The notes under the pieces are model-generated. The model saw only the letters and a list, made by a program, of their open reading frames with translations, made no database searches and was not told where the DNA came from. DNA of 31,736 nt, taken from IMG/VR virus record IMGVR_UViG_3300036828_000623, positions 1 to 31,736 of that record; one strand, 5' to 3'. A program made the position numbers and the translations under genes. This DNA comes from a virus. Numbering within the stretch: position 1 is the first letter of the stretch; the number at the start of each line of letters is the position of its first letter. Shown one piece after another: positions 2,455 through 30,965 of the stretch.

Positions 2455-5400
2455 TGGCTGACGAGCGCGCCAATCTAACAATATCATTAACCGATGAGAT
2501 GTCGGACGGGCTGCGCTCGATTGTGCGGCAGTTAGAAGTTATGAAGCGCTCTATGTCAGACACTCAGCAGACCAGCGCTGGTAGCCATCAAGAGATAGTA
2601 AGACAGCAGCGCGAGCTGCAGGAAGGAGCGGGGAAAACCAATCAGGAAATTGAGAAGGCCTTTGGCGCTCTTGATAAGCAGCTCAAACAATTCACTAAGC
2701 CACTTAAGGAGATGCATGAATTATTTGCCAAGATGCCAGAGCCAATCAAGCGAGTTGGTGAGTCTATGCGGGAGCTTACCAATATTGCTAACGTAACGGT
2801 GCGAACGTTCAGTACATTGAGCGGTAGCGTAATAGGAATTGCTGGTGGCCTTGGATCGTTGACTGTTGGATTTGTTACGCTAGGCAATCGGATGGCTGAA
2901 GCATCAGAAGCCTCACGACGGCTAAAGTTTGATATTGGCGGTAGTTTTGTTGATGTGAAGCGGGCATTTGAGGCTGCTGGATTAGATGCTGATGCTTCAA
3001 TGGCTAGAATTACAAGCTGGGCAGAGCGTATGCACGATATTGGGCGCGGAGTGTATTCTGATTTTTATCGCATATTACAAGGCTACGGTCCTGTTGCTGA
3101 GAAGGTGGCTATGGACCTGCAAAAGGCAGCAGAAGCAGGTTTGCCATTCCAGCAACGTATGAAGATGTTTCTTGAATTCTACGGTAACCAACCAGAGATT
3201 ACACGCCGTCAACTTGCCAGATCGTTCGGCGAGTCAACGGCTGTGCTAGATGATGCTGAGCGCAAGATGCGGCGCTCGAAGGATGCTTGGAGACCGGATC
3301 CACGTCAGGTTGTAGAGAACCAGAAGATGTGGCGCAATTGGGCTGAATTTGTTGAAGACGTATCTGAGGGATATGAGGATTGGGAAAGACGTATTGAGTC
3401 AGCATTTACTACTGGAATGGCGCCTATTTTTTCGCGTGTGGCAGATAATCTTAAGGTATTGAAGCACGATGCTGATGAAGCAATGGCGGCTATGCAGAAT
3501 TTTTTTACTGTTTCGGATGAGGGCAGAAAACGTATTGAAGACCGTATCAATAGACAGAACAAGCCCGGTAGTGGTTGGTTTGGTGGCTTCTTCAGTAGGC
3601 CTACAGGGCAGGAGTTTCACTCGCAGGAGGAAAGCTGGCAAAAATTTTCAGACGAAGAAGCGGCCAAGCGCGAGCGCGAGCGTAAGTTGCCTGGGCCGAG
3701 TAGCGATAGTGTTGGCGACCCATTCGGTTCGCTGCGTCGCCGTCAACAAGGCGGATCCGCTTATGCTGGTACGCCATATCTAGTTGGAGAGAGTGGACCG
3801 GAGCTATTTACGTCGCACGGTAACGTTGGTGCTTCAGCCGCGGGCGGTACAGGACAACCCTTGCGCGAGATTGAACAAAGCTGCAAGGAAGGCAATAATT
3901 ATCTGGAGCAAATGCGTGACGTGATCCATTGGATGCGTCAAAAAACGGAAAGTGGTGGTGGACCGGGAGGCGTTGGCAGAGGACAAACTGGCCTTGGCGG
4001 AATGCCGCGTTGGCTCGGCGGGCCTGGAGGCGGTACAGGAGGCGGTACAGGCAGAGGAGGCAGAGGAGGCAGAGGAGGTACAGGAACTGGCAGAGGAGGC
4101 GATACTGGAACTGGCACAACGCCAATAGGTAGCGGCTCACAGCCTCAAGGGCCTGGATTGTTTCCGCCCGGAACGCCTGCGCACGTTGATACTGGTAGCG
4201 GACGGCGTTGGTCGCGTCACACCGCGCCTTCTGGAACTATGATGCCTTCTCCACAACCACAGCAGCCTACAGGTGGTGGTAACATTCCTATTCTTGATCC
4301 AAAAAAACAGCCAAGAGGCGGTCAGGAAATTTATTCGAGACTGGTTGAAGAGTTTAGAAACTCTGGTCTGGTTGGAGTTGTGCCGCCAGACGGTAAGCAA
4401 TTCGGAATTACGACTGGCTCAGCTGAAGAATGGGCCCGATTTGGTACTGCTGTTGCTGCTGCTGAGTCCAGTTTTAATCCAAGATCAGCAAATACAAGCG
4501 ATCCTGGTGGATCGTTTGGCGTATTTCAATTTGCGCACAATCAAGTTCCAGGCGGAAATGCCTATGATACGAATGCATCCATAAAAGCTTTCGTTAGAGA
4601 TACAAAGGCTTCTGTAAATAACACAGGCGGTATACGTGGAGGTCGTGGTAGTCGCAGCATCCTTGCCAGGCGGTTTGATACCATTGGAAACAACCCGCAT
4701 AAAACGGTGGGGAGACTTGGCGAGGCAGGGAGAATTGCTGAAGCGGCTGGTCGAACCGCACCAGCTCAGCCCGCACCAACTGCGCCAACTACTGGCGGTG
4801 GCGAAACTGGCAGCAGCACCGGGCCTAGAACTGGTGGTGGGGATGGGCGGGTGATGTATAACCCGATAACTTCAAGTAATTTTATGGGTGGTGTTGGAGC
4901 TAATAGCGCCTCGCGTGGACGCGGTCAACACCAAGGAGAGGATTGGGGCGCTGCTGTAGGCACTCCAGTTTATGCGGTTTCAGATGGCGTTGTTGAACGC
5001 ATAGGTACAGATAATTTTGGAAAGCCTGCGGTTAGCATTCGACATGATGATGGTACTTATACTCGTGATATGCATCTCAGCCGAGTTGATGTAAAAGCTG
5101 GTGATCGAGTGCAGGGCGGTAAGCCTTATGCTCTTAGCGGGACTGCAAACGGCGTTCCGCATTTGCATCATGAGCGGTGGTCAGGTAAGCCTGGCAATAG
5201 TAATTTGCTTAGTCCTGCGCAAGAGTCTGGATACGGTCGTAAGCGTATGACTGGTGGGGAGGTATCTCCAAACTTTGCTGATCAGGGCACAGGCGGAAAG
5301 CCTCCGTCAGCTGCGCCAAGAACGGGAGCGAACCCTCAGCCAAAACCAACAGGGCCTTACATCGAAGGTGATTATGGTTATGGGAAACCACCAGGTGGAA

Positions 5401-9519: not shown

Positions 9520-10701
9520 TTGCCGGCTCAACAACTTGGAATGGAGGAGCTTAACGTTGGTGGTCGTAATTTTTTTATGGTCAATCGTCCACCTTTCCTT
9601 ACTCGCGCTGTTATTGTTGTTGCTGGCCAGATATATTACGAATGGGTAACTGTGCAAGTTCGTTTGTCCATCAACGAGCAGCCGCCTTACAAGTTCACTT
9701 TCACAAATAGCGAACAAGAACCGTACGGACCTAATTCAGCTTTTCGCATCCGGCCGCCAGACGATTGTATGATCTTTATGGATGGCATAAAGGTCATTGA
9801 CGGGTTTGTTACGGAGCGGCAGGTCTATTACGACGCGACCCAGCATACTGTTCAGATCCAGGGCGTTGGTAAGCCGGGAAAGTTGTCGAATGCTCCCGCG
9901 GCAAGTAAGACCGGAGAGTTCAAGAACATTGACATTATGGGCCTGGCGAAGGCGCTGGCTGGTAAGGCGGGAGTGAACGTTAGCGGCGAAGGTGCTGCTG
10001 GCGGCAAGTTTGACCGGGCGATGGTGCAGCCTGGTGAGAGCGCGTGGGAGATGATCGAGAAATTTGCCCGTAGCGCTGGCAAGTATATGACAGAAAATGC
10101 TAATGGTGATTTGGTTCTTACAGATGGCAGTATGGGCGGCAGAGGCGCGTCATTGGTTGAAGGCTACAACATAGTCAGCGGTCGCGAGCGCATCTACACA
10201 ATGATGCAAAGCCAAGGCCAACAGGTAGCTGGCCAAGGTCCAGGCAGCGACACTGCCTCTATGGGCGAGGTGGCGCAGCGCTTTATTGAGCAGGTTACCC
10301 AGAGCGTTGCAGGCGGTGGCGGCGGCGGAGCAAAGGAGAATACGCTGTCACGTTCGCTATCTGAGATCCCGGCCTTTGCTATGGACCTGCTCAAGAAGCG
10401 CGCACAGCACGAGGATAGCATATCTGATAACCTTATGATCTACGTCACTATCGTTGTGGTTGGCTGGCGTAATGAGGGTGGAGGCTTGTGGTTGCCGGGC
10501 GATTATGTGCACGTTGATTCACCGATGTTAATTATGAACCGTACGCTACGGATCAAGGCTGTAACGTTTTCACAGGACGACCACGGCGGTACCCGCTCTA
10601 CAATAGAGCTGGTTAACAAGCTGGGCCAAGGACAACAGCAAGCCGACGGCGGTGATGGCGGAGGTGGCGGAGGGGGTGGCGGAGGTGGAGAAGGCGGATG
10701 A
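9520..10701 (+). CDS. Baseplate hub protein, Mu gp44-like
   Basis: 393 residues. The TTG start three bases after the previous stop has a GGAG-type ribosome site about nine bases upstream; the ATG at 9541 has none. The pattern fits Mu gp44 / gpD-type hub proteins: an N-terminal beta domain with a binding-pocket region (YYEWVTVQVRLSI, then DGIKVIDGFVTERQVYYD), IQGVGKPGKLSNAPA, FKNIDIMGLAKALA, and VQPGESAWEMIEKFARSAGKYM. In this family the hub sits at the tail tip, between the tape measure and the central spike. A poly-Gly loop near residues 265-272 and a Gly-rich C-terminus (about 370-393) are unusual additions. The next start overlaps its stop (ATGA), which suggests coupled translation with the spike gene. 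Confidence 0.85.
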   Translation: MPAQQLGMEELNVGGRNFFMVNRPPFLTRAVIVVAGQIYYEWVTVQVRLSINEQPPYKFTFTNSEQEPYGPNSAFRIRPPDDCMIFMDGIKVIDGFVTERQVYYDATQHTVQIQGVGKPGKLSNAPAASKTGEFKNIDIMGLAKALAGKAGVNVSGEGAAGGKFDRAMVQPGESAWEMIEKFARSAGKYMTENANGDLVLTDGSMGGRGASLVEGYNIVSGRERIYTMMQSQGQQVAGQGPGSDTASMGEVAQRFIEQVTQSVAGGGGGGAKENTLSRSLSEIPAFAMDLLKKRAQHEDSISDNLMIYVTIVVVGWRNEGGGLWLPGDYVHVDSPMLIMNRTLRIKAVTFSQDDHGGTRSTIELVNKLGQGQQQADGGDGGGGGGGGGGGEGG

Positions 10702-11810
10702 CAATTAGGACGAATGTACCAGACGCTTCGCGGCGCGCGCAGACGTCAATTGCGCGGTGCACAATACGGGAGCACGATGACGATCACGATATGATGGAGA
10801 TCAAAGCCGCAGACGTGATGCATTCCGAAACACCAACTAATTTTGAGAAGTGGCAGCCGTGTGGATTTACTTGCCATCCAAAGAAGCAGGACCAAGAGCA
10901 GCAGCAGCAAGGCCAAGGTCAAGATCAAGGCGGACAAAGTGGCGGCCAGGGTGGCGGCAATGGCGGTGGTGGAGGCGGTGATGGAGGCGGTGGTGGTGAT
11001 GGAGGCGGTGGTGGTGATCTCAAGGGCGCATTCAACAACAACCAGCCGAAATCACCAGCCGCGGAAGGCATGATGCTTTACGTTGGCGGCTCGCGCTCCC
11101 ATCCAGTTTGTATTGGGGTCGATGACCGCCGGGTAAGGCCATATGGATTGAAGGAAGGCGAAGCTGCGCTATATTGCCCGGATGGATCTGGGCAGATGGT
11201 CTATCACCGTTTGCGTGGAGATGACAAGGACGGGATCTATATGCTTTCGCTCGATGACCAGGGGCAACAGCAAAGTGGTGGCGGCGGAGGCGGAGCTGGC
11301 ACACTCGCTACCGATAGTAGCGGCGGTGGCTCCAGTGGCGGCCAGCAGCAACAAAGCAAGCAACGCATCATCTCGATCCGCCACGTGGTCAAGAAGCGTC
11401 AGCCGCGCAAGTCGAAGAAGCTACAGCAGGCGCAACAACAACAAGCTGGCGGCGGTAGCACTGGCCAACCGCAGAGATTTCAAATTGCTGAGTTTGCGAC
11501 TGATAGTGGCGCTGGCGGTGCCGCTGGTGCCGGTGGAGGCTCTTCAAATTATAAGCACGAGGGCGATACCGTCAACGTCGAAATGAGGCTGTCGAGCAAG
11601 AAAATCGAATTCTATGATGGCGAAAAGAAGATAGGCCATTATGATAAGGAAAAGACCACGTGGAAGGTCTATGTTGATGACAAGGAAGAAAACTCAGTCA
11701 CCGTCACCAAAGACCACACGCTGATGGAGCACGGCAATAACGCCATTTTTGTTGACGATGGCGGTAATTGGTCCGACCAACCTATTCAGAATAAGCCAGA
11801 GCCTCCATGA
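10698..11810 (+). CDS. Baseplate spike protein, Mu gp45-like, with Gln/Gly-rich inserts
   Basis: 370 residues; ATG overlaps the hub gene stop (ATGA). The core region about 118-185 (GGSRSHPVCIGVDDRR, then GLKEGEAALY) matches the Phage_Mu_Gp45 / gpV pattern. The C-terminal part (about 288-350) has short alternating beta-strand sequence (VNVEMRLSSKKIEFYDGEK) expected of a trimeric membrane-piercing spike. Two long Gln- and Gly-rich stretches (about 60-110 and 190-260) break the usual compact fold and are much longer than I expect for this family. The first 40 residues fit the family poorly. Inference: the point that pierces the outer membrane, held by the hub. Confidence 0.82.
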   Translation: MTIRTNVPDASRRAQTSIARCTIREHDDDHDMMEIKAADVMHSETPTNFEKWQPCGFTCHPKKQDQEQQQQGQGQDQGGQSGGQGGGNGGGGGGDGGGGGDGGGGGDLKGAFNNNQPKSPAAEGMMLYVGGSRSHPVCIGVDDRRVRPYGLKEGEAALYCPDGSGQMVYHRLRGDDKDGIYMLSLDDQGQQQSGGGGGGAGTLATDSSGGGSSGGQQQQSKQRIISIRHVVKKRQPRKSKKLQQAQQQQAGGGSTGQPQRFQIAEFATDSGAGGAAGAGGGSSNYKHEGDTVNVEMRLSSKKIEFYDGEKKIGHYDKEKTTWKVYVDDKEENSVTVTKDHTLMEHGNNAIFVDDGGNWSDQPIQNKPEPP

Positions 11811-12409
11811 AGTTTTGGCTTGTTATAAAAAAAAATGGAAGCTGTACGGTAGGTATTGATAATGCGAATGTTAGCGGGATAAATAATTCTGGGTTGCCCG
11901 CTAACATTTACATGATCACATACGAGGATAGGCAAGGACGCATTGCCTATCGCGACCGTCAACAAATTGGTTATCCATTCTTTGATCCAACCTGGATTGT
12001 GCCTTATGTTGAACAGGCCTTATTGGTCTTGTCTAAGCGCGATCCGCCGTTGCTGCTGGAGCAGGCGCAGAGTATTAAGTTGGAGCTGGTCGATGCACAG
12101 CACAATGCCAAGCGGCAGGCGCCAATTGGCTATCTAAATCGCGAGTGGGCTACGGACGATGATACCCATTCAGTGATGTCAACAATGTTTGCTGGTGATG
12201 ATGGTATTGATGATCAGCAGCTCTACTGGTACGCGATTGGCGTTGGTCAACCTGTACAACTGACTAGGGGGCAGTTAGTTGAGATGCTACAAGAGATTGT
12301 AAAGCGCAATAGGCGGTTGTTTCAAATACGTCAGCTGTTGGCGGCGGCAATTTATGCTAGGAATAGCGTTGCCGATGTGATCGCTGTTGACCTTGTCAAG
12401 CGGTGGTGA
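11807..12409 (+). CDS. Tail protein with DUF4376-like C-terminal domain
   Basis: 200 residues; ATG overlaps the spike gene stop (ATGA). Residues 1-85 read as a small beta-rich domain (FWLVIKKNGSC, YMITYEDRQGR). Residues 85-200 look like the DUF4376 domain seen at the ends of phage tail or fibre-associated proteins: a helical stretch ending in LTRGQLVEMLQEIV, then ALxxA-type helices, with WATDDDTHSVMST before it. The biochemical role of that domain is not known to me. The tight overlap and the position between spike and gp43-like genes suggest a tail-tip or assembly protein. Confidence 0.6.
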   Translation: MKFWLVIKKNGSCTVGIDNANVSGINNSGLPANIYMITYEDRQGRIAYRDRQQIGYPFFDPTWIVPYVEQALLVLSKRDPPLLLEQAQSIKLELVDAQHNAKRQAPIGYLNREWATDDDTHSVMSTMFAGDDGIDDQQLYWYAIGVGQPVQLTRGQLVEMLQEIVKRNRRLFQIRQLLAAAIYARNSVADVIAVDLVKRW

Positions 12410-12413
12410 GCAA

Positions 12414-13250
12414 ATGGCAATCCCTAGTCGTACCAACCAACGATTTCGTCTTCCGACGAACGCGGACCTGCGGCCGTTAGTACCAGGCTCGCGCTTCAGC
12501 GACATTGATGCCAATCCGCGCAATCCACTTTGGCGGAGGCGGTTACGTACTGCCAAGTTCAAGGGGCGACCGTTCTACGTAGATCAGCAAGGGCGTAGCT
12601 CAGGCAGGCGGGTTGTTGTATTTGAATATCCAAAGCGTGATATTCCATTCTCTGAGGATATGGGTAGACACGCAATACGTTATCAGGTTACAGGCTATTT
12701 GATTCAGGCCCCAAAGGATCCTGTGAAGAACGATGATGCCAACTATTATTATCACGAAATGTATCGCGATTATGACCTGAACCGCGATGCATTGGAGGCG
12801 GCACTAATGTCGCCTGGCCCTGGAACGTTGCAAGATCCTTATAATCCGCGGATGAGCCTTCCTGGCTATAGTACTGGCCAAACTAGCGGTACACCTACAA
12901 ATGATTCCTGGCAGGCCTATCTGGCCAATCTGGAGGGCACCACTAGCCCCATTAGCAATATTCAAGGCGGTGGTGGCGGCTTGCAGTTCATGTGCGAGCG
13001 CTATTCCATCATCGAACAGAAAGACAAGGGCGGCTTTTGTACCATTGAGATGAGCTTTGTGGAGGCTGGCATTCCCGGTAACACCTTCACTGATGAATTT
13101 GCTGCCGCAGCTCTGCAAATGGTCGCCTTGGACACTTTGAAGAGGGCTGGAACTCAGCTGAATTCTGATCTATCTGATCTGAGTAATCTAACACAACAAG
13201 GGTTAGGTGGTTCCAATGTTCAGATAGGGACGCCACAAGTGGTTCAATAA
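12414..13250 (+). CDS. Mu gp43-like protein (DNA circularisation N-terminal domain), N-terminal half
   Basis: 278 residues from the ATG at 12414, five bases after the previous stop; an upstream TTG at 12387 would overlap that gene and adds no conserved sequence. The pattern matches DNA_circ_N / Mu gp43 (gpN): NPLWRRRLRTAKFKGRPFYVDQ, GRRVVVFEYPKRDIPFSEDMGR, YQVTGYLIQ, RDALEAALMSPGPGTLQDPY and GGFCTIEMSFVEAGI. In Mu this protein belongs to the tail (older literature named it for DNA circularisation). It ends after the N-terminal domain; the usual C-terminal half appears instead in the gene at 14718, two genes downstream. Confidence 0.83.
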   Translation: MAIPSRTNQRFRLPTNADLRPLVPGSRFSDIDANPRNPLWRRRLRTAKFKGRPFYVDQQGRSSGRRVVVFEYPKRDIPFSEDMGRHAIRYQVTGYLIQAPKDPVKNDDANYYYHEMYRDYDLNRDALEAALMSPGPGTLQDPYNPRMSLPGYSTGQTSGTPTNDSWQAYLANLEGTTSPISNIQGGGGGLQFMCERYSIIEQKDKGGFCTIEMSFVEAGIPGNTFTDEFAAAALQMVALDTLKRAGTQLNSDLSDLSNLTQQGLGGSNVQIGTPQVVQ

Positions 13251-13266
13251 AAGGGAGTGATTAGAC

Positions 13267-13647
13267 ATGCCTGGTAAAGTGAATGCTTGGGGGCTCGATA
13301 ACGGTTTGTTGGGTCTCAAGGCGAATGCAACTCACATATATATCTGTAGCCAAGAGCCTTTGGATTATGCTGGAGCTACTACAACATACGCGCTCGGCAA
13401 TCAAAGCTTCGGCGCTGGAAACGTCTTCACTGGACCTGTTGACCGCTCGCCAAATGGCCGTAAGATTACGACGGTGGCGGTGACCAGTGGCACTGTTACA
13501 GGAACCGGTAACGCTACGCGTTGGGCTATTGTTGATTCAATCAACAGTAGATTGCTGGTTGACAATGACCTAGCCAGCGGTCAGGCGGTGACTGCTGGGA
13601 ATGTGTTTTCCATTCCAGCCTTTGACTTTGGAATACCCGGCTCGTGA
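13267..13647 (+). CDS. Small structural protein of unknown function
   Basis: 126 residues; ATG preceded by a good ribosome site (GGGAG about nine bases upstream). The sequence is Gly/Thr/Asn/Ser-rich with beta-strand character (VTSGTVTGTGNATRWAIVD) and no Cys cluster, membrane segment or catalytic motif. I do not recognise a named family. Its position inside the split gp43 region and directly before a fibre gene, which starts within its stop (GTGA), suggests a virion or fibre-attachment protein. Confidence 0.6.
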   Translation: MPGKVNAWGLDNGLLGLKANATHIYICSQEPLDYAGATTTYALGNQSFGAGNVFTGPVDRSPNGRKITTVAVTSGTVTGTGNATRWAIVDSINSRLLVDNDLASGQAVTAGNVFSIPAFDFGIPGS

Positions 13648-14711
13648 CGGCAAAATCCATTACGCATAAGTTTGTTCAGACCATCGCGGATGGAACTGAT
13701 GGCACACTCATACGTCCATCCAACTGGAATGATGATCACAATCTTTGGTTGGGCTATCGTGCTGTTACAATCACAACCGACGCTATCACAAGCGCTGATC
13801 ATCTTACGCTGATAACCTATAATAATGCTGGTGGGGTAGCGGTAAGCCTTCCTTTACCGTCTTCCGCCAATATTCCACTAGGATGGCGAGCCAAACTGTT
13901 CAACCTTCTTGGCAACGTCACAATTACACCAGCATCAACAATCAACGGTAGCAACACTCCAATTGTCTTGGCAAGGTATGAATCAATCGATTTGTGGGGC
14001 ACTGGAACGGCGGACTATATTGGCGTCATTACTCGGTTGCCTACTGCGAAACCATTCAGCACCGGTATCAAGACGTTCACTGCTTCGGGATCCTATACGC
14101 CTACTCTGGGAATGATCTATTGCGATATTGAGTGCGTGGGCGGCGGTGGTGGGGGAGGCGGTATTGGTGACAGCACTGGTGTAAGTGTTGGTGTTGCTGG
14201 AGGTGGGGCTGGTGGATATTCCAGGCACACTGTTTCGACCGCGGCTATTGGCGCCAGTCAGGTCGTCACCATCGGTGCTGGCGGGGCTGGTGGAACTGGC
14301 AGCAGCGGCGGAAATAGCGGCAGTAGTGGAGGGACAACAAGTGTCGGAGCCATTTGCGTCGCTAATGGTGGAGCTGGTGGTGGCGGCATGAATGCTTCTT
14401 GGCAAGGCGGAGCGGGCGGCAGCATTACGGGCGCAGTTGGCGACGTAATGGCGGCTGGTGCACCTGGTGGTCCTGGATCTTCTACTGGCGCAACTGTTGG
14501 ATTTGCTGTTGCCGGTAATGGCGGCTCTAGCTATTTTGGCGGTGGTGGCCGTGCTCCGGGACCGCCAGCAGATACTGTTAGTACAGTTGGTGGTGCCGCG
14601 ACAAATTATGGATCTGGCGGAAGCGGAGCTGCTGGAACCAATACCGCTACCGTTCGCGCTGGTGGTGCTGGATCTGCTGGTGTCGTTGTTATAACCGAGT
14701 TTTTTGGCTAA
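13644..14711 (+). CDS. Tail fibre with glycine-rich C-terminal domain
   Basis: 355 residues from a GTG overlapping the previous stop. The N-terminus (SITHKF, then GTLIRPSNWNDDHN) resembles a head segment I associate with many fibre-type phage proteins. Residues 145-160 (FTASGSYTP) lead into a poly-Gly domain (from about 164 to 350) made of GGxGG stretches, like the polyglycine sandwich receptor-binding domains of some fibre tips and adhesins. It likely recognises the host surface. The high Gly content makes a 263-codon spurious ORF on the other strand. Confidence 0.75.
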   Translation: MTAKSITHKFVQTIADGTDGTLIRPSNWNDDHNLWLGYRAVTITTDAITSADHLTLITYNNAGGVAVSLPLPSSANIPLGWRAKLFNLLGNVTITPASTINGSNTPIVLARYESIDLWGTGTADYIGVITRLPTAKPFSTGIKTFTASGSYTPTLGMIYCDIECVGGGGGGGGIGDSTGVSVGVAGGGAGGYSRHTVSTAAIGASQVVTIGAGGAGGTGSSGGNSGSSGGTTSVGAICVANGGAGGGGMNASWQGGAGGSITGAVGDVMAAGAPGGPGSSTGATVGFAVAGNGGSSYFGGGGRAPGPPADTVSTVGGAATNYGSGGSGAAGTNTATVRAGGAGSAGVVVITEFFG

Positions 14712-14717
14712 GGCAAA

Positions 14718-15992
14718 ATGGCTCACGGCCCTCCTGCCTTCCAGAGCAATGCGGTTCAACAAAACGCATTTCAAAGTGGCGTACCGTTCGTTGCGAGCAA
14801 TTACTCGCTCGGCTCACCAGTCTTTGGCTTTGGAAATTTGCTTCCGCACTTAAGAGTAAGCACATATTCATTAGGCTCGCCAAGTTTTGCTAATCCATTA
14901 TTGACTGCAACTGCTGCAGGAGCACACAAATCATTACACGCTAATCCATATTCGCTTGGTGCGCTGTCATTTGCTGCGCCTTCGTTGCGTCCGATATATA
15001 ATCTACATGCATTTGCATTTAGTGTTGGATCGCCAACCTATGGTACTGCAGGCGTACCAATTGGCATTCATCAATTGCAACGGTTGTCCGTCAATCTTAT
15101 GGCGGTTGGCCCGCCAGATTTTGGCCACGGTAGAATAGTTGCTAACTATCAAATAACTGCACAGGGCTTCTCTCTCAGCGGTTTCTCTTGGCCGTCAGTC
15201 GGTCCGCTTTTCGTTATTCAATCGCTAGCGGTTAATGCATATTGGCTAGATAGCCCACGCTTCGGTTATCCGCGGCTGCAGTGGAGCGCTGTAGCTCCAG
15301 GTTATCCGCCAACCTTCCTTTCGCAGATTGAGGACGCTGCGAGGATGCTCAATGGGCTATTGAACCTGCTTATGGCGAGCGTTCCAGCGGTGATTAATGA
15401 CCAGACTAATAGCGTAAGGCGATTGATTAGCATAATGCAAGGCGATACGCAGGGTGCTGTTCGTGACCCTACGCTTGGCACCCAGCTACAGGCGATTTAT
15501 CAGGGAGTGGCTGCCGCTGGCTCCAGCTATACTGGCATCGAAGCGGCGCGGCAATACCTAATGCAGCAAAGCGCTGGTGAGTCGCTCTACTCTCAAGCTC
15601 TGTTCCGGTCGGCATTGTTGATGACACTTAGCGCTGAATCATTGATCATAACTAATATCAAATTCACTAACCAGGATGACGCTAAAAGCATGATTATGCA
15701 CGTCCAAGATATGTTTGAAGAGGCCAAGGCTGTTGGTATTGATGATATTGACGTTATGACTTATCAGGCTTTGAATGCTCTCGGCGGTAAGCTGGTGAGT
15801 TATCTTTCTAGCGCTGTGCTACAATTGCCGCGCCTTGTGAAGTATGATGCACGATTTCCGATGCCGTCGTTGTACCTGGCGCAGCGCATCTATCGCAATC
15901 CAACTAAGTCTGATGAAATTGAGGGTGAGAATGCAGTTGTCAATCCGGCCTTTTGCCCGCGCATATTGCGTGTGCTCTCTGAAGGAGTTTAG
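14718..15992 (+). CDS. Repeat domain fused to the C-terminal half of a Mu gp43-like protein
   Basis: 424 residues. After an AFQSNAVQQNAFQS start, residues 29-185 contain seven variations of a Y/F-S-L-G-S-P-x-F motif (29, 50, 78, 101, 127, 151, 175) spaced 21-28 residues. Residues 200-424 match the C-terminal half of DNA circularisation / Mu gp43 proteins: FTNQDDAKSMIMHVQDMFEEA, a helical stretch ending LPRLVKYD, then FPMPSLYLAQRIYRN, ENAVVNPAFCPRILRVLSEG. The matching N-terminal domain is encoded separately at 12414-13250. Both halves look intact, with no debris linking them, so this is more likely a working two-part protein than a decayed gene. Confidence 0.75.
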   Translation: MAHGPPAFQSNAVQQNAFQSGVPFVASNYSLGSPVFGFGNLLPHLRVSTYSLGSPSFANPLLTATAAGAHKSLHANPYSLGALSFAAPSLRPIYNLHAFAFSVGSPTYGTAGVPIGIHQLQRLSVNLMAVGPPDFGHGRIVANYQITAQGFSLSGFSWPSVGPLFVIQSLAVNAYWLDSPRFGYPRLQWSAVAPGYPPTFLSQIEDAARMLNGLLNLLMASVPAVINDQTNSVRRLISIMQGDTQGAVRDPTLGTQLQAIYQGVAAAGSSYTGIEAARQYLMQQSAGESLYSQALFRSALLMTLSAESLIITNIKFTNQDDAKSMIMHVQDMFEEAKAVGIDDIDVMTYQALNALGGKLVSYLSSAVLQLPRLVKYDARFPMPSLYLAQRIYRNPTKSDEIEGENAVVNPAFCPRILRVLSEGV

Positions 15993-16517
15993 ATGGACAT
16001 CCGCATCGTAGCCTCTGCCACGCTACAGGAAACTGTAGCTGACTGGAACTTAATGCCAAGCGGCTTGCTTGATGAGCGGGAAGAGCTGGCCAATTACGTC
16101 AAGGTCGCGCTGATGACGGACCGTACAGCGTCGCTGGATGAGGTGCTGCCGGATCCTGACTCTACCGACTATCGCGGCTGGTGGGGCGATATGGACGCGA
16201 AGGCAATCTGGAATGGTTGGCAAATTGGAACCAAGAACTGGTTGTTGACGCGGGCGAAGATTACACCTCCTGAGGCCTGGGAGCACGATACAGTATCCAG
16301 GGCGGAGAATTATACGCGCGACGCTCTTCAACCTATGATTGACTTGAGGATGTGCTCAGCAATAGATGTACAAGCGGCGCGGGTAGCCATCGACCGAATT
16401 GATGTTTACGTTGCGGTCTATCGCGGACCGCGGCTGGCTGTGGAGCTGATATTCCAGGATCTTTGGAACAAATTTGTCAATGTAAAAGTTCAATCGCCGT
16501 ACGGAGCTGGTCTATAA
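15993..16517 (+). CDS. Baseplate protein, Mu gp46-like
   Basis: 174 residues; ATG directly follows the previous TAG, with GAAGGAG just upstream as ribosome site. The family pattern of GP46 is clear: an early hydrophobic strand, ALMTDRTASLDEVLPDPD, then YRGWWGDMDAK, then NWLLTRAKITPPEAWEHD and a helix with EALQPMI-like sequence. In Mu-type phages this wedge protein replaces the gp25-like protein of T4. It lies in the canonical order before the gp47- and gp48-like genes. Confidence 0.87.
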   Translation: MDIRIVASATLQETVADWNLMPSGLLDEREELANYVKVALMTDRTASLDEVLPDPDSTDYRGWWGDMDAKAIWNGWQIGTKNWLLTRAKITPPEAWEHDTVSRAENYTRDALQPMIDLRMCSAIDVQAARVAIDRIDVYVAVYRGPRLAVELIFQDLWNKFVNVKVQSPYGAGL

Positions 16518-16518
16518 G

Positions 16519-17616
16519 ATGCCTTGGAGCACGCCCACTCTGCGGCAGGTGCGCGAAATGGTGCGCGATGATATAACCACGTCGCTAGTTGGTGCGGCAG
16601 TCGTTGGAAATACGGTTTTGCGTGTGGTGGCGGATGCGCAAGCCGGTCTGACGCGTTTGATTCTGAAATATCTGGATTGGCTATCGCTCCAGCTGATGCC
16701 GGATACTGCGGAGACCGAATGGCTGGATCGCCATGGACAAATCTGGATTGTCAACTCTGACGGCTCGCTGGGGCGCAAGGCTCCAACGCCGTCTACTGGC
16801 ACAGTTCAATTTACAGGTGTCGCGGGAGTTCAAATCCCGGAAGGTACAGAGCTGATTTCGCCGGATGGGTGGCTATATGAAACGCTAGAGTTCAAGACAC
16901 TGACAGATAATCCGATTGAGATTGCAGTACGGGCGCTCAATCCGGGCTCCACAGGAAATATTCCGGCTGGTACGCCATTATCTGTGACCACGCCAATTGC
17001 TGGCGTACAAGATGTTGCTGCGGTAGACCTGCGCGGCGGTACAGAGACAGAAACTGATGAGCAGTTGCGAGCGCGAGTGCTGGCCCGCATTCGCCAGCCG
17101 CCAATGGGTGGGTGCGCTTACGACTATGAGCAATGGACCATGCGCATACCTTCTGTGACGCGGGTTTGGTGCGCGCCGCGCGAGCTGGGCATGGGCACAA
17201 TCACCGTCCGCTTTATGGTGGACGCGTTGCGCGCCGACACTGGAGGCTTCCCATCAGCAGAAGATATGGCTGTGGTGCGGAACTATCTTGATATTGTGCG
17301 GCCGGTAGCGGTGCGTGATTTTTTTGTCATGGCTCCTGTGGCGGAGCCGATCGATTTCGGTCTTTCCCTCAGTTTTGACTCCTTGACAGTGCGCAATCAA
17401 ATTGCTGCATCTTGTTCTGATATGATCAAACAAAAGGCCAATCCAGCCCATCAAATAGATGGACAGCTTGTCGCTGGTACAACGATCAAGGCCTCTTGGA
17501 TTGCGGAAGCAATCAGTCGCGTTACAGATAATTTTGTGTTGGATATGGAAGACCATCCTATGCCGCACAACGGGGCTTTGGCAGTACTCGGCACAATCAC
17601 TTATCCGGTGCCATAG
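16519..17616 (+). CDS. Baseplate J-like protein, Mu gp47-like
   Basis: 365 residues; ATG two bases after the previous stop. The sequence follows the Baseplate_J pattern: TPTLRQVREMVRDDI, a helix with LDRHGQIWIV, then GVAGVQIPEGTELISPDGWLYE, ALNPGSTGNIPAGTPLSVTTPIAGVQ, GGTETETDEQLRARVLARIRQPPMGG, and the V.RVW...R..G.GTITV.F motif near residues 210-235. This is the main wedge protein joining hub and outer baseplate. Length and order agree with Mu-like phages. Confidence 0.9.
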   Translation: MPWSTPTLRQVREMVRDDITTSLVGAAVVGNTVLRVVADAQAGLTRLILKYLDWLSLQLMPDTAETEWLDRHGQIWIVNSDGSLGRKAPTPSTGTVQFTGVAGVQIPEGTELISPDGWLYETLEFKTLTDNPIEIAVRALNPGSTGNIPAGTPLSVTTPIAGVQDVAAVDLRGGTETETDEQLRARVLARIRQPPMGGCAYDYEQWTMRIPSVTRVWCAPRELGMGTITVRFMVDALRADTGGFPSAEDMAVVRNYLDIVRPVAVRDFFVMAPVAEPIDFGLSLSFDSLTVRNQIAASCSDMIKQKANPAHQIDGQLVAGTTIKASWIAEAISRVTDNFVLDMEDHPMPHNGALAVLGTITYPVP

Positions 17617-17619
17617 CTG

Positions 17620-19401
17620 ATGAGCAATGGCCAAGATGCATTTCAGAGTGATGCTTTTCAGCAGCAAGGCTTAGCCTTTCAATCACATATTGTTGTAATA
17701 GAACCGCCACCTATACGTCCTTTGCCGCCAGCACTATTGCCGCCTGAGCTGGCGCAAGACCCGGAAGATGAACCGTTACAGCCTGACCGTCACGTGCGGA
17801 GAGGGCAGGAAGAATATACTCACGCGCTTTCCGCTTTGCTCCCGCAAGGCATAGCTTGGCCGCGCTGGCCAGAAACGATATTGATGCAGGTCGTCAACGG
17901 GCTGGCCGCTAGCTTTGGCTGGTGTGATGGCCGCGCCGCGGATATGCTGGAGCGCGAGAGCGATCCGCGCCAAACGGTTGAGATGCTGGATCAGTGGGAG
18001 CGCGCCTGGGGGCTTCCAGATCCATGCTACCAAGGACCGATTAGCGTACACGAGCGACAGATTGCGCTAGTGTTGCGCATAACGATGTTAGGTGCGCAGT
18101 CGCGCGAATTCTTTTACAGTGTTGCTGAGTTTCTTGGTTACAAGATAGCAATTTCTGAATACCGGCCATTTATGGTTGGTGTTGATCGTTGTGGCGACAA
18201 CCGACAAATAAGCGCGGATGGAGTGCTGAGCGATTGGCCTTGCCAGATTGGCTCCTCACAGATGCGCTTCTATTGGACTGTGCACCTGCAACAGCCAAAG
18301 CTGGTATGGTTTCGCGCTGGCAGTGGCCAGTCCGGCATCGATCCTCATCTACGCATTGCGCGCGCAGCGGACTTGGAATGTGTTATTCATCGCTGGGAGC
18401 CTGGACATACTCAGGCGTTGTTTGATTACTCCGGAATTGACGATCCATACGCTGGTGCTGGAAGATATTACATAACTTTGCGCAGCGGGGATTATGTCTC
18501 TTTGAGAGACAATACGACTGAGGTCACTAACGAGCGTCCAATTTCGATCTTCTGGCCGCAGGCTCCAACATCGTACTATACTGGCTCGCCCACTTTTGCT
18601 ACGCCGTTGATGCTCGTTGCGCTAGCTCCATCCGATCCATCAACAACGGTTTGGTATAATACCATAATAATGAAGGGCGGCACAGTCAGCGATCAGCGCT
18701 TACAGCAGATTGATCTTTTGATCAAGCGGCTCAAGGCGGACGGCGTTTGGCCGGTGTTAGACCGGCTTTGGATGTGGGACGGTGATAGTGAAGTTGAGGC
18801 GTTGGTTGATCTCGTTGCTGGAGCTATCGCCACCAACGCTGGTAGCGGATTTCAACCTAAGCGCGGATATAGTGGTGCTTATATCAATTCTAATTTCAAT
18901 CCAGTTACCGCGGGCGGAAAATATATCCGCAACAGCGCGGGTCTCGGCGCTTGGGTGCTGCTTGGTGGATCTGGTCTGCCCTACAACATTATTGTGTCTA
19001 GCCTAGGCGCTGCGGCGAACAGCTATATTGACATCGATGATGGCGGTTCTAGCATAAGCTATTTTGCGATCAATGATGCAAAAGCTGGGACTTGGGCCTT
19101 CAGCACAGAGACTTTGAATTATGGCATGTTTGCTGTAAACCGCAATGGCTCGACAAATTCTCAGGCGTATTACAACGGCATCGAAATTCAGTTTTGTTCG
19201 AATACATCAGCTGCGCCACCTTCGAGCCCGATCACCTTTAATGGTGGGATGGGCGGCTACTACAGCGATAGTCAGCTTGTGATGGGATACATCTCAGGCG
19301 GTATGACTGTTGCGCAGCAGCGCGCGCTCTATAACGACCTGCGTTCTTACTTCATCGCGATGAATGTGCCAGTCGGCACACCGCCTTCGCCGCCATTATA
19401 A
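17620..19401 (+). CDS. Mu gp48-like baseplate protein fused to a C-terminal lectin-like domain
   Basis: 593 residues; ATG three bases after the previous stop. Residues 60-270 (YTHALSALLPQGIAWPRW, then MLDQWERAWGLPDPC, then YKIAISEYRPFMVG) fit the gp48/YmfQ (DUF2313) family. The rest is an added region: one copy of the YTGSPTFATP motif (320-329) found repeatedly in the 14718 gene, then DRLWMWDGDSEVEALVDLV (381-399) and a beta-rich end (about 410-585) that resembles LamG/concanavalin-like domains of phage tail proteins. The N-terminus shares an AFQSDAFQ motif with the 14718 gene. Probably a wedge protein that also binds a surface sugar or a fibre. Confidence 0.8.
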   Translation: MSNGQDAFQSDAFQQQGLAFQSHIVVIEPPPIRPLPPALLPPELAQDPEDEPLQPDRHVRRGQEEYTHALSALLPQGIAWPRWPETILMQVVNGLAASFGWCDGRAADMLERESDPRQTVEMLDQWERAWGLPDPCYQGPISVHERQIALVLRITMLGAQSREFFYSVAEFLGYKIAISEYRPFMVGVDRCGDNRQISADGVLSDWPCQIGSSQMRFYWTVHLQQPKLVWFRAGSGQSGIDPHLRIARAADLECVIHRWEPGHTQALFDYSGIDDPYAGAGRYYITLRSGDYVSLRDNTTEVTNERPISIFWPQAPTSYYTGSPTFATPLMLVALAPSDPSTTVWYNTIIMKGGTVSDQRLQQIDLLIKRLKADGVWPVLDRLWMWDGDSEVEALVDLVAGAIATNAGSGFQPKRGYSGAYINSNFNPVTAGGKYIRNSAGLGAWVLLGGSGLPYNIIVSSLGAAANSYIDIDDGGSSISYFAINDAKAGTWAFSTETLNYGMFAVNRNGSTNSQAYYNGIEIQFCSNTSAAPPSSPITFNGGMGGYYSDSQLVMGYISGGMTVAQQRALYNDLRSYFIAMNVPVGTPPSPPL

Positions 19402-28128: not shown

Positions 28129-30315
28129 TTATACCACCCAGTTGCGCCATTCATCACCGGTCAGCACTGCGGCTAGATCAATCTTTTTTCGCAGCGCCTC
28201 CAATATTTTAGGCTCCATAGTGCTTGGAGCAATCAGGTCGATGTAGTCAACTTGACGCTCCTTCGTCAATCCTTGGACGCGCTGCTCGCTTTGGTCGCGG
28301 TGCTCAAGATCATTGGTTGATGAAAAGTAAATCACCAAATCCGCCTCCAACCAGGTCCGCCCTCGCCCACCGGCCGCTGGCGTCGCGACCATAAAGCGAC
28401 ATTCAGGATTGGTCCTGAAATCTAGCTCCTCCTTCTCGCGAGTGTTGGCGTTGCCGCCCCAGAAACGTGCCACGGACGCGGAACCATATTCCTTCGCTAT
28501 GGCGGCGGTGACCTTGCGGACGCTATAATCGTATGAGCACCATATCACAGCCTTGCCGGAATAGTCAGCTAATATTTCCAACAGCTCCGAAGTGCGGGCT
28601 TCAGGGATCTCATGTAACTTGCCGCTTTCGTCCAGCGTGTGGCCGCAGAGGATCTGGTGGAGCCTCAGGATTTGCGCTATCACGACTGTGGCAGTTACGT
28701 GCGAAGCCTCCTCTAACTTGGCTGTAGCAAATCTTTTCATTTCCGTATAGATGCGCTTTTGCTCGCTCGTCAGCGCAACCTCGCGAATTGTGAAAGTGGA
28801 AGGGATTTTGGGGCGAAACTGGACGCGGAAGGAGTAAGGCTCGATCAGCTTTTGTAGCTGATCTAAGTTCTGGTAGCCAACAATCTCGTCTACCCAACGG
28901 CTGTAGTGTACTCGGCGCACAATCGCATAGCGGGCCTGAAAGATCCAATAGTTGGCGCAACGTAGAATGGCCGGATCTAGAAATTCAAATTGGCTCCACA
29001 GATCTAAAGGCGAACGTGGCGTGGGTAGTCCGGACAAGATGCGGCGGTAGCTCGCTCTCGGCGCTAGCACACGGTTTATGAACTTAGTGCGCGCAGCTTT
29101 GCGGTTCTTGATGATGGTAGAGTTATGCGTGAGAATTCCTTCCGCAAAAAAGTGCGGAGTGCCTTCGAGCTCAAGGTCGAACACATCAACAGCACTTGTG
29201 AATTTTTCAATCGTAACGTTTTCCACCCTAATTTGGCTACGCGGTTTATCTTCTTTTGATCTCTTGCCTTGGCAAACCGGCTTTTGTGATTGCCACCATC
29301 GCACTCGATTGCCAGTTTCATTTTTGGATTGCCTAAGTCCATCTTGCAATTGGTTGGATAGCCGTACCGCCTCCCTCCCAATGCGATGACGAATTCCGGT
29401 TCCCATTGCGGGCCTAATACCTTCAACAATAGCTTTTGCGGTTTGGGGAGCGGACGGCCATTGCGCTGCCTGGTCCTTCTCATCTTGGCGGATCTGGCCT
29501 TGGTATAGATGCGCGCCGCTCTTATTTCCATTAGCCATTTCGCTGAGCAGGATGTGCCGCAAAATCTTTGTTTGTGTATCATTTTGCCGCAATATTGACA
29601 ATGCCTCATCATCAAATAAAACCCTCCCTTGCAGATTGCCTGCACACACCCATCCAATATCAGTAAAGAACGGATGATTAGGCGTTACCCTAATTTGCGT
29701 GCCATTTGACAATGTCAACTTGACTAGAACGTTGCTGCGCTTCTTTAGTATCTTTGAAACTCGGCTGATGCCTTGAGATGAAAAAACAGGCTCGCCCAGT
29801 ATCACATCCTTGATCGGAATGTGCCCTCGCAACGTCTTGATCTTAGTATCTCCGATAAAACATTCATCAATAACGATCATCGCGCGTGAGCGGTCGCGCA
29901 GGAATTGTCGGCAAAAATCCCGCGCCCTTTCGACAGAAGAAAGCGCCTCAACATTCATCAAAGCAATGCGCGGGCTTCCGCTGTTCATTTCCAAAAAATT
30001 CTTCTTGGCAGCAATCGCGCGCTTGGTATTAGAAGATCCTGAGTCCCATGTGAATATCGTCAGCCGTTCTAACAACTGATCTTCAACGTGGTCCGCGATA
30101 GCTGTTTCCCAGGTATGATAAACGCCATTGGGAGCGATGACCAACATATCATCGATCTGGTCCGCCTCCTCCAGTTGGCCAAAATTATCCAATACAACTT
30201 TAGTCTTTCCGGTGCGCATGAACATGTATAGCGCGAACATCCGCATTCCATGCAAACGTTCTAGCGCCTCGCTTTGGTGCGGATAGGGCAGTAGCTTGCC
30301 GGTATATGTTGTCAA
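28129..30315 (-). CDS. SNF2-type superfamily 2 helicase interrupted by an intein
   Basis: 728 residues as encoded, 481 after removal of the intein (152-398). The TTG start overlaps the stop of the gene before (TTGA) and is kept because later ATGs would lose the Q-like motif YPHQSEALERL (11-21). Motif I is MRTGKT (33-38), motif II IDE (149-151) joined after splicing to STIIKN, motif III RRILSGLPTPRSPLDLW (424-440), then IWCSYD (591-596), ATPAAGGRGRTW (644-655) and motif VI QSEQRVQGLTKE (675-686). Family knowledge: SNF2-like phage helicases use ATP to translocate on double-stranded DNA, in replication or recombination. Activity should require splicing, because the intein separates Walker B from the following serine. 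Part of a leftward operon with the winged-helix-like gene. Confidence 0.85.
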   Translation of the reverse strand: MTTYTGKLLPYPHQSEALERLHGMRMFALYMFMRTGKTKVVLDNFGQLEEADQIDDMLVIAPNGVYHTWETAIADHVEDQLLERLTIFTWDSGSSNTKRAIAAKKNFLEMNSGSPRIALMNVEALSSVERARDFCRQFLRDRSRAMIVIDECFIGDTKIKTLRGHIPIKDVILGEPVFSSQGISRVSKILKKRSNVLVKLTLSNGTQIRVTPNHPFFTDIGWVCAGNLQGRVLFDDEALSILRQNDTQTKILRHILLSEMANGNKSGAHLYQGQIRQDEKDQAAQWPSAPQTAKAIVEGIRPAMGTGIRHRIGREAVRLSNQLQDGLRQSKNETGNRVRWWQSQKPVCQGKRSKEDKPRSQIRVENVTIEKFTSAVDVFDLELEGTPHFFAEGILTHNSTIIKNRKAARTKFINRVLAPRASYRRILSGLPTPRSPLDLWSQFEFLDPAILRCANYWIFQARYAIVRRVHYSRWVDEIVGYQNLDQLQKLIEPYSFRVQFRPKIPSTFTIREVALTSEQKRIYTEMKRFATAKLEEASHVTATVVIAQILRLHQILCGHTLDESGKLHEIPEARTSELLEILADYSGKAVIWCSYDYSVRKVTAAIAKEYGSASVARFWGGNANTREKEELDFRTNPECRFMVATPAAGGRGRTWLEADLVIYFSSTNDLEHRDQSEQRVQGLTKERQVDYIDLIAPSTMEPKILEALRKKIDLAAVLTGDEWRNWVV
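29076..29612 (-). CDS. Zinc-finger plus Vsr/EDxHD-type homing endonuclease nested out of frame in the intein
   Basis: 178 residues, in the +1 frame relative to the helicase-intein frame. The ATG pair at 29612/29609 has AAGGGAGGG nine bases upstream; an earlier TTG at 29657 is not needed. Residues 5-22 form a C4 zinc finger (C5, C8, C18, C22; CQYCGK, RFCGTSC). Residues 58-140 match the Vsr-like/DUF559 nuclease fold: WEPEF (E71/E73), KMDLG (D92), AIECDGGNH (E103, D105, H109), RDQKK (D118), then LGWKTLRLKNSQV. E, D, H and D in this order fit the EDxHD homing endonucleases. Family knowledge: related enzymes accompany inteins and introns and spread them by cutting the empty site. The stop lies 46 bases past the intein, in the C-extein. 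Two-frame coding of an intact nuclease with its own ribosome site cannot easily be chance. Confidence 0.85.
   Translation of the reverse strand: MMRHCQYCGKMIHKQRFCGTSCSAKWLMEIRAARIYTKARSAKMRRTRQRNGRPLPKPQKLLLKVLGPQWEPEFVIALGGRRYGYPTNCKMDLGNPKMKLAIECDGGNHKSRFAKARDQKKINRVAKLGWKTLRLKNSQVLLMCSTLSSKALRTFLRKEFSRITLPSSRTAKLRALSS
29122..29862 (-). other. Intein (Hint splicing domain) at Walker B of the helicase
   Basis: Encodes helicase residues 152-398 (247 aa). Block A begins at C152 (CFIGDTKI). Block B is GTQIRVTPNHPFF (205-217) with T211 and H214. Block F is VFDLELEGTPHFFAEG (378-393), and block G is ILTHN ending H397-N398, followed by nucleophile S399. All splicing residues are present, so it should be active. 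The linker (about 231-374) has no in-frame LAGLIDADG or HNH motif; instead it overlaps an endonuclease gene in another frame. Confidence 0.93.
29622..29630 (-). promoter_or_regulatory. Ribosome binding site for the nested endonuclease
   Basis: AAGGGAGGG on the minus strand, nine bases before ATG 29612, inside the intein reading frame (codons for QGRV). It decides the endonuclease start and indicates separate translation from the helicase mRNA. Confidence 0.78.
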
Positions 30316-30707: not shown

Positions 30708-30965
30708 TTACTTTGTCCTTTCCTTCACCTTTGAGGATGTAGCTACAGTGTGGCCGCTCGCGTCGCGGAACGTTGTGGTACCGCTCCGGTCAGTTGTGGC
30801 TGTGCCTACAGTGCGGCCGTTGGGATCGCGGAGCACAGTTGTACCTTGGCCTGTGTCAGCGGCCATTCCAACAGTGCGGCCGTGCCCGTCACGCAGCACC
30901 GTTTGCTCCGCAGTGGCGGAGGTAATGTTGAGCGCGAGCGTGGCGAGAGCGATTATTGTTTTCAT
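30708..30965 (-). CDS. Small exported protein with TVLRD-type repeats
   Basis: 85 residues; ATG overlaps the previous stop, with AAGGA six bases upstream. A signal peptide (MKTIIALATLALNITSATA, cut likely after Ala19) leads to three units of about 21 residues, TVLRDGHGRTVG, TVLRDPNGRTVG and TTFRDASGHTVA, then a short basic end. Similar Asp/Gly repeat proteins occur, from memory, in rhizobial genomes; function unknown. It looks like bacterial cargo (a moron) rather than a phage core gene. Confidence 0.65.
   Translation of the reverse strand: MKTIIALATLALNITSATAEQTVLRDGHGRTVGMAADTGQGTTVLRDPNGRTVGTATTDRSGTTTFRDASGHTVATSSKVKERTK

What the first reader, a model, noticed from the sequence alone, without database searches (positions are those of the whole stretch)
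29076..29862. A complete homing endonuclease gene nested out of frame inside an intein
The helicase intein (29122-29862, minus) has every splicing residue but no endonuclease motif in frame. In the +1 frame the same DNA carries a 178-residue protein with a C4 zinc finger (C5, C8, C18, C22) and a Vsr-like nuclease with the E-D-H-D set (E71/E73, D92, H109, D118), an ATG and a strong ribosome site. Known inteins carry their endonuclease as an in-frame domain; Vsr-like/EDxHD enzymes are known as free-standing neighbours of split inteins and introns. A dual-coded arrangement, in which one DNA segment is both intein linker and separate endonuclease gene, would be a different solution to intein mobility.
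Basis: partly seen in the sequence, partly recalled or inferred. Interest (0 to 1): 0.94.

Follow-up and report, generated by a model that had tools for sequence, protein, structure and literature searches.

The report
Nuclease gene hidden inside an intein
A self-splicing protein insert (intein) in a phage helicase gene also encodes, in a shifted reading frame of the same DNA, a complete DNA-cutting enzyme that probably spreads the insert, and well over a hundred relatives keep exactly this two-in-one arrangement.

Summary
The finding is real and far wider than the window. The helicase (28129-30315, minus) carries an uninterrupted intein (29122-29862). The same DNA in the +1 frame encodes a 178-aa Vsr-like/EDxHD (DUF559) nuclease with a C4 zinc finger (29076-29612).

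Relatives show both frames are kept. In every related intein found (138 different uninterrupted ones, from phages and prokaryote genomes) the nuclease is in the +1 frame. Across 24,416 nuclease codons in 109 loci there are 0 intein-frame stops, against 961 expected. Substitutions concentrate at the nuclease wobble position: the nuclease sequence is conserved, the intein linker is only kept open. AlphaFold gives a confident nuclease in one frame and a disordered loop in the other.

+1 is the frame in which any protein can be nested by silent changes alone, since every intein-frame stop begins at a nuclease wobble T. All 2,216 risky T/C choices use C.

Phages phi673/phi674 are an intein-plus/intein-minus pair with a co-conversion-like tract. 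One clade has broken into three-gene split inteins.

Expression, cleavage and splicing are inferred. Closest precedent: the ShiLan out-of-frame HNH, which lacks an intein; one preprint on non-canonical phage inteins could not be read.

The parts
28129..30315 (-). Phage SNF2/DEAD-type helicase gene (TTG start) that hosts the intein; N-extein 29863-30315, C-extein 28129-29121
   Evidence: Open 728-aa ORF; SNF2-rel_dom 4.9e-12 and Helicase_C; PHROG 62 DNA helicase 5.2e-76; intein-free homologues match the two flanks only
29122..29862 (-). Intein, 247 aa, inserted after the DE of helicase motif II (DE|C...THN|S)
   Evidence: Intein_splicing 6.7e-12; profile and fold nearest to the gp41-1 intein
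29593..29862 (-). IntN splicing half (intein residues 1-90), blocks A and B
   Evidence: pLDDT 91-98 in the intein model; Cys1 and His63 invariant
29236..29592 (-). Intein linker (residues 91-209), the dual-coded stretch; disordered in the intein frame
   Evidence: pLDDT 42-53 for residues 111-200; low intein-frame conservation but no stops in relatives
29122..29235 (-). IntC splicing half (residues 210-247), blocks F and G ending THN; also read by the nuclease 3' tail
   Evidence: pLDDT 96-98; N247 invariant, H246 nearly so
29076..29612 (-). Nested nuclease gene, +1 frame, 178 aa, ATG at 29612, stop 46 nt beyond the intein end in the C-extein
   Evidence: Translation; DUF559; confident model, pLDDT 89; L169 shares the same long 3' overlap
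29622..29630 (-). Shine-Dalgarno-like AAGGGAGGG, written in intein codons
   Evidence: Sequence; SD enrichment at relatives' starts
29547..29600 (-). C4 zinc finger (C5, C8, C18, C22) of the nuclease
   Evidence: Invariant in alignment A2; family profile matches FCS-type zinc fingers in PDB
29175..29444 (-). Vsr-like/EDxHD catalytic domain: E73 (29394-29396), D92 (29337-29339), E103 (29304-29306), D105 (29298-29300), H109 (29286-29288), D118 (29259-29261)
   Evidence: Invariant or nearly invariant in 40 sequences; 3HRL 8.8e-12 and I-Bth0305I 0.0049 by profile; I-Bth0305I and Vsr among the top fold matches

Best explanation
This is a mobile intein whose homing endonuclease is a separate gene, dual-coded in the +1 frame of the intein's own linker. 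Proposed cycle: (1) ribosomes on the helicase mRNA make the precursor, and the Hint domain splices out a 247-aa intein with a floppy loop (motifs shown, activity inferred). (2) Other ribosomes start at the internal ATG, after a Shine-Dalgarno sequence lying in intein codons, and make the 178-aa zinc-finger/EDxHD nuclease (start shown, expression inferred). (3) The nuclease cuts intein-free helicase genes at the conserved motif II codons, and repair copies in the intein with the nuclease gene (mobility of a relative supported by an allelic pair; cleavage inferred). Selection keeps the nuclease sequence, and for the linker mainly the absence of stops. This is possible because each intein codon begins at the nuclease wobble base: every stop begins with T, and T-to-C there is always silent for the nuclease.
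For: Nuclease at +1 in every related intein with a detectable N half (138 different uninterrupted inteins). 0 intein-frame stops against 961 expected in 109 loci, third frame 1716 against 1570. Overlap substitutions sit at the nuclease third position; nuclease identity 0.64 against 0.40 in the intein frame. T never used at 2216 risky wobble sites, relaxed to 69% T in the split clade. Folded nuclease and disordered linker from the same DNA. Vsr/I-Bth0305I/3HRL relationship. ATG start in 112 of 113 with SD enrichment, 35% against 5%. phi673/phi674 intein-plus/minus pair with 7 of 17 mismatches within 78 nt downstream of the junction.
Against: No protein, cleavage or splicing data. About 40% of relatives have an anti-SD match of 3 nt or less at the blindly chosen ATG. 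Foldseek E-values of the nuclease are weak, about 0.1. The window nuclease is the shortest of those aligned and on a long branch. Uniform +1 partly reflects common descent.
Confidence: 0.83

Rival explanations
1. The nuclease is not initiated internally but made as an N-extein/IntN-nuclease fusion by programmed +1 ribosomal frameshifting.
For: The nuclease is always +1 downstream of IntN, and about 40% of relatives lack a good Shine-Dalgarno match.
Against: An ATG follows IntN in 112 of 113 loci, with SD enrichment. The sequence before the ATG varies widely and shows no common slippery motif by eye. In the split clade the nuclease is an ordinary gene between the halves. The ShiLan authors also propose internal initiation (PMC11855218).
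Confidence: 0.1
2. The +1 ORF is only a relic: the intein has fixed, and the window's nuclease is no longer active.
For: Shortest nuclease among those aligned and a long branch. Another member (L118) has only a 91-aa remnant in a 200-aa intein, so erosion happens. Mini-inteins without nuclease occur at the same site in Vibrio phages.
Against: All catalytic and zinc residues are kept. Against L169, changes before the C block favour the nuclease wobble position (40/33/60) and nuclease identity (71/118) exceeds intein-frame identity (45/118). The model is confident.
Confidence: 0.2
3. The two open frames are a coincidence of sequence composition; one of them is not used.
For: The window alone would be weak evidence: 1 of 400 shuffles is open.
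Against: 0 stops against 961 expected across 109 loci, including genomes of 25-31% GC; each frame matches its own protein family and fold.
Confidence: 0.01

Closest known systems
Out-of-frame HNH insertion in phage methylases (ShiLan domain; Arsenault et al. 2025, PMC11855218)
   Same: A homing-type nuclease gene out of frame in an insertion that stays open in the host gene frame; distribution like a homing element.
   Different: No intein or intron detected there, so the insert stays in the protein; HNH instead of EDxHD; [quoted passage not shown] GTG start without RBS. Here a full intein removes the shadow peptide, and the class is far wider.
Split inteins with a free-standing EDxHD nuclease gene between the halves ('fractured genes', Dassa et al. 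2009, from memory; gp41-1, NrdJ-1 type)
   Same: Vsr-like nuclease as a separate gene in the middle of an intein; splicing domain nearest to gp41-1 by profile and fold.
   Different: There the host protein is made in two pieces that trans-splice; here the intein stays one chain and its linker overlaps the nuclease gene. L071, L076 and L104 are split members of the present family. Dassa 2009 could not be read.
EDxHD homing endonuclease I-Bth0305I (PDB 3R3P, annotated 'Mobile intron protein')
   Same: Catalytic fold and E-D-H-D residue set; profile E 0.005-0.009, Foldseek probability 0.97.
   Different: Intron-associated rather than nested out of frame in an intein; DNA-binding parts differ (here an N-terminal C4 zinc finger).
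Classical mobile inteins with in-frame LAGLIDADG or HNH domain
   Same: Splicing domain plus homing nuclease sharing one DNA segment.
   Different: In those the nuclease is part of the intein polypeptide; here it is a separate product in another frame.
Gosselin, Arsenault and Gogarten 2025 preprint on actinobacteriophage inteins with non-canonical architecture (10.1101/2025.01.02.630785)
   Same: Cited in PMC11855218 for overlapping reading frames in actinobacteriophages, so it may describe out-of-frame endonucleases in inteins.
   Different: Not held here and not read; priority for single cases in actinophages cannot be judged.

Membership tests
Intein (class 1) | Cys1, block B TxxH, C-terminal His-Asn, +1 Cys/Ser/Thr | tested here: met
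   C1, TPNH, THN|S; C1, H63 and N247 invariant, H246 nearly so in 38 sequences
Intein (class 1) | Hint fold and in-frame insertion in a host protein | tested here: met
   Pfam 6.7e-12; Foldseek gp41-1 7.9e-9, TM 0.83 over target; open helicase ORF
Intein (class 1) | Protein splicing activity | not testable with these tools
   Needs expression
EDxHD / Vsr-like homing endonuclease | Vsr-like catalytic fold with E-D-H-D residues | tested here: met
   E73, D92, H109, D118 conserved; I-Bth0305I and Vsr among the top fold matches, though E about 0.1; profile match to I-Bth0305I 0.005
EDxHD / Vsr-like homing endonuclease | Additional DNA-binding region | tested here: inconclusive
   C4 zinc finger conserved; the segment between finger and nuclease present in relatives is mostly missing in the window
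EDxHD / Vsr-like homing endonuclease | Cuts the insert-free allele and drives copying of the insert | not testable with these tools
   Indirect: phi673/phi674 pair with a co-conversion-like tract
Split intein with free-standing EDxHD gene | Host and intein made as two polypeptides | tested here: not met
   Window intein is one open frame; met only in L071, L076, L104
Intein with in-frame homing endonuclease domain | Nuclease domain in the intein reading frame | tested here: not met
   No nuclease family in the intein frame; nuclease at +1 in all relatives with an N half
ShiLan-type out-of-frame insertion | Insertion without any splicing domain, HNH nuclease | tested here: not met
   Complete Hint domain present; DUF559, not HNH, is the Pfam family matched by all 43 members

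The most novel reading that the evidence does not exclude
Dual-coded inteins are a widespread, ancient class with their own mobility solution, confined to the +1 frame by the genetic code (T-to-C wobble changes are always silent, so any nuclease can be nested there at no cost to its sequence). The known split inteins with EDxHD genes between their halves arise from this class when a wobble T creates an intein-frame stop, so the class would explain the origin of fractured genes.
Probability: 0.45. Interest if true: 0.93.

Novelty: new variant of a known kind. Interest (0 to 1): 0.86.

Why it matters
A mobile element here stores two proteins with unrelated folds in one stretch of DNA, and does so in all of the more than a hundred related inteins found. 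It gives a large natural data set for overlapping-gene evolution, with a simple coding rule that explains the frame. It offers a concrete route from contiguous to split inteins, which are major protein-engineering tools. It also suggests that annotators miss these nucleases: in the isolate phages opened, only one helicase-like CDS is annotated. The phi673/phi674 pair makes the homing claim directly testable in a laboratory host.

Tried and rejected
Chance open frame: rejected by the synonymous-codon shuffle. Nuclease frame as a by-product of intein coding: rejected because nuclease codon positions 1 and 2 are the conserved ones in the overlap. Conserved intein-linker residues taken as functional: R186 is the reading-frame shadow of the nuclease E103 codon, and L172/Q173 lie against the residues just before D92. 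A viral-contig scan with the window nuclease alone found nothing because its peptide patterns were too specific; alignment-based scans worked. Genome hits L120-L168 are DUF559 proteins without a detected intein, used only as codon controls. The window's own record gave nothing beyond the window. The first nuclease tree attempts failed for script reasons; deep branches of the final tree are poorly supported. Literature searches found no report of an out-of-frame nuclease inside a true intein, but only open-licence papers are held; Dassa 2009, Gorbalenya 1998 and the Gosselin 2025 preprint could not be read.

Full report
Observation. The window helicase ORF (28129-30315, minus) reads without a stop through a 247-aa intein at 29122-29862. 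The intein has Cys1, the block B motif TPNH, and ends LTHN before +1 Ser. Pfam finds only splicing-type (Hint) families in that frame, Intein_splicing at E 6.7e-12. Helicase homologues in isolate phages match only the two flanks. In the +1 frame, 29612-29076 encodes 178 aa with DUF559 above its curated cut-off. AAGGGAGGG lies 9-10 nt before its ATG.

Relatives. tblastn of the nuclease against 50,697 phage records gave 40 records. In all seven loci opened, the match lies inside one CDS annotated as helicase or without function, at +1 to that CDS, and no nested gene is annotated. Alignment-based scans of IMG/VR and GTDB genomes gave 160 loci, and a further scan 80. Classified with home-made profiles of the N and C splicing halves, every locus with a detectable N half (113, then 79 more, partly the same contigs) has the nuclease at +1; none is in frame and none at +2. 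After removing duplicates there are 138 different uninterrupted inteins of 200-500 aa. In 122 of them the residues just upstream are DE, as in helicase motif II, and +1 is Cys in 128 and Ser in 10. Genome-borne examples come from genomes or MAGs labelled Bacillota, Chloroflexota, Myxococcota, Planctomycetota, Verrucomicrobiota, Acidobacteriota and others; whether these are prophages was not checked.

Both frames are maintained. Keeping each nuclease protein and its codon counts but shuffling synonymous codons predicts 961 intein-frame stops in 109 loci (24,416 codons). There are none. The unused third frame has 1716 against 1570 expected. Genomes of 25-31% GC are included. For the window alone the expectation is 3.5 stops, and 1 of 400 shuffles is open. 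In 31 independent pairs (18 in a first run), changes inside the overlap before the C splicing half concentrate at the nuclease third position (0.29/0.25/0.49 per site); nuclease identity is 0.64 and intein-frame identity 0.40. The N splicing half shows the usual third-position excess in the intein frame. Where the nuclease 3' end overlaps the C splicing half, divergence falls and the two frames are about equally conserved, 0.68 and 0.64. The window against its nearest relative L169 shows the same: 60% and 38% over the same DNA.

Why +1. In this register each intein codon starts on the nuclease wobble base, and every stop starts with T. T-to-C at a third position is always silent, so any protein can be nested here by silent changes alone. 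The prediction holds: at nuclease codons ending in T or C and followed by AA, AG or GA, C is used 2216 times and T never, while T is used in 57% of such choices elsewhere in the same genes. In the split clade T returns (69%); in free-standing relatives it is 59%, and in the helicase part 42%. The zero is the same fact as the absence of stops; the contrast with split and free-standing relatives is the independent part. In the +2 register, Met followed by a codon that must start with A would force a stop; the nucleases hold 3.0 such pairs on average and only 5 of 137 hold none. Common descent also contributes to the uniform frame.

What the two products are. AlphaFold on alignments of relatives gives the window nuclease a mean pLDDT of 89. 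The intein model has 91-98 in the splicing halves but 42-53 in residues 111-200 of the linker. Among the best fold matches of the nuclease are I-Bth0305I and Vsr, probability 0.97 and 0.93, but E only about 0.1. Its sequence profile matches 3HRL (3.8e-12), FCS-type zinc fingers and I-Bth0305I (0.005-0.009). The intein is nearest to the gp41-1 intein and a bacterial intein-like domain by profile (6e-22 and 1.5e-22) and to gp41-1 by fold (7.9e-9).

Translation start. An ATG follows the N splicing half in 112 of 113 loci. Picking that ATG blindly, 35% have an anti-SD match of 5 nt or more against 5% of internal ATGs. Internal initiation is therefore favoured over frameshifting, but not proven.

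Mobility. Corynebacterium phages phi673 and phi674 have helicase genes of identical length once the 906-bp intein is left out, with 17 mismatches, 7 of them within 78 nt downstream of the insertion, including the +1 codon (Cys in phi673, Val in phi674). This looks like a co-conversion tract and supports homing. Vibrio phages show three allelic states at one codon: empty (141E35-1), a mini-intein of about 150 aa (K458, 268E42.1) and the dual-coded intein (1.194.O).

Link to split inteins. In L071, L076 and L104 the helicase/IntN ORF ends about 20 nt inside the nuclease gene and IntC/helicase restarts inside its 3' end, giving three overlapping genes. They form one clade (support 100/99) inside the contiguous ones, so splitting looks derived here, though the root and deep branches are uncertain. 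The known gp41-1-type split inteins with EDxHD genes (from memory, Dassa et al. 2009) may have the same origin; this was not tested. L089 has a free-standing family member directly upstream of the start of a helicase gene, with no intein detected.

Novelty. PMC11855218 describes out-of-frame HNH genes in a phage methylase insertion without splicing domains and without an RBS. It cites a preprint on non-canonical actinophage inteins that could not be read. No readable paper reports an out-of-frame nuclease within a true intein. I file it as a new variant of mobile inteins, not a new kind of system, and keep open that single cases are already reported.

Limits. Nothing here shows expression, splicing or cleavage. 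The window's nuclease is short and divergent and could be weakened. Intein ends in relatives were found by pattern and profile, not by experiment.

Noticed in passing
L005 (phi673) and L248 (phi674), helicase CDS: Near-identical Corynebacterium phages with and without the intein; mismatches cluster just 3' of the insertion, and the empty allele has Val where the intein needs +1 Cys, as expected if co-conversion brought in the splicing residue.
   Followed up: partly
L249 and L250 (Vibrio phages K458, 268E42.1): A mini-intein of about 150 aa without nuclease sits at the same helicase codon as the dual-coded intein of close relatives, while 141E35-1 (L251) is empty there.
   Followed up: partly
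L071, L076, L104: Split versions of the same element: IntN, nuclease and IntC as three overlapping genes; C-half ORFs begin at an ATG inside the nuclease gene.
   Followed up: yes
L089 around 4001-4588: Free-standing member of the nuclease family directly upstream of the start of a helicase gene with no intein detected.
   Followed up: no
L118 around 4052-4327: A 200-aa intein with only a 91-aa nuclease ORF, apparently a stage of erosion towards a mini-intein.
   Followed up: no
window 9520-19401, plus: Baseplate hub and wedge genes by PHROGs: a contractile-tail phage, with the tail module on the plus strand and the helicase module on the minus strand.
   Followed up: no
window 30708-30965, minus: Small ORF (85 aa) with a signal-like start and three degenerate repeats of the type VLRDxxGRTVG.
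   Followed up: no
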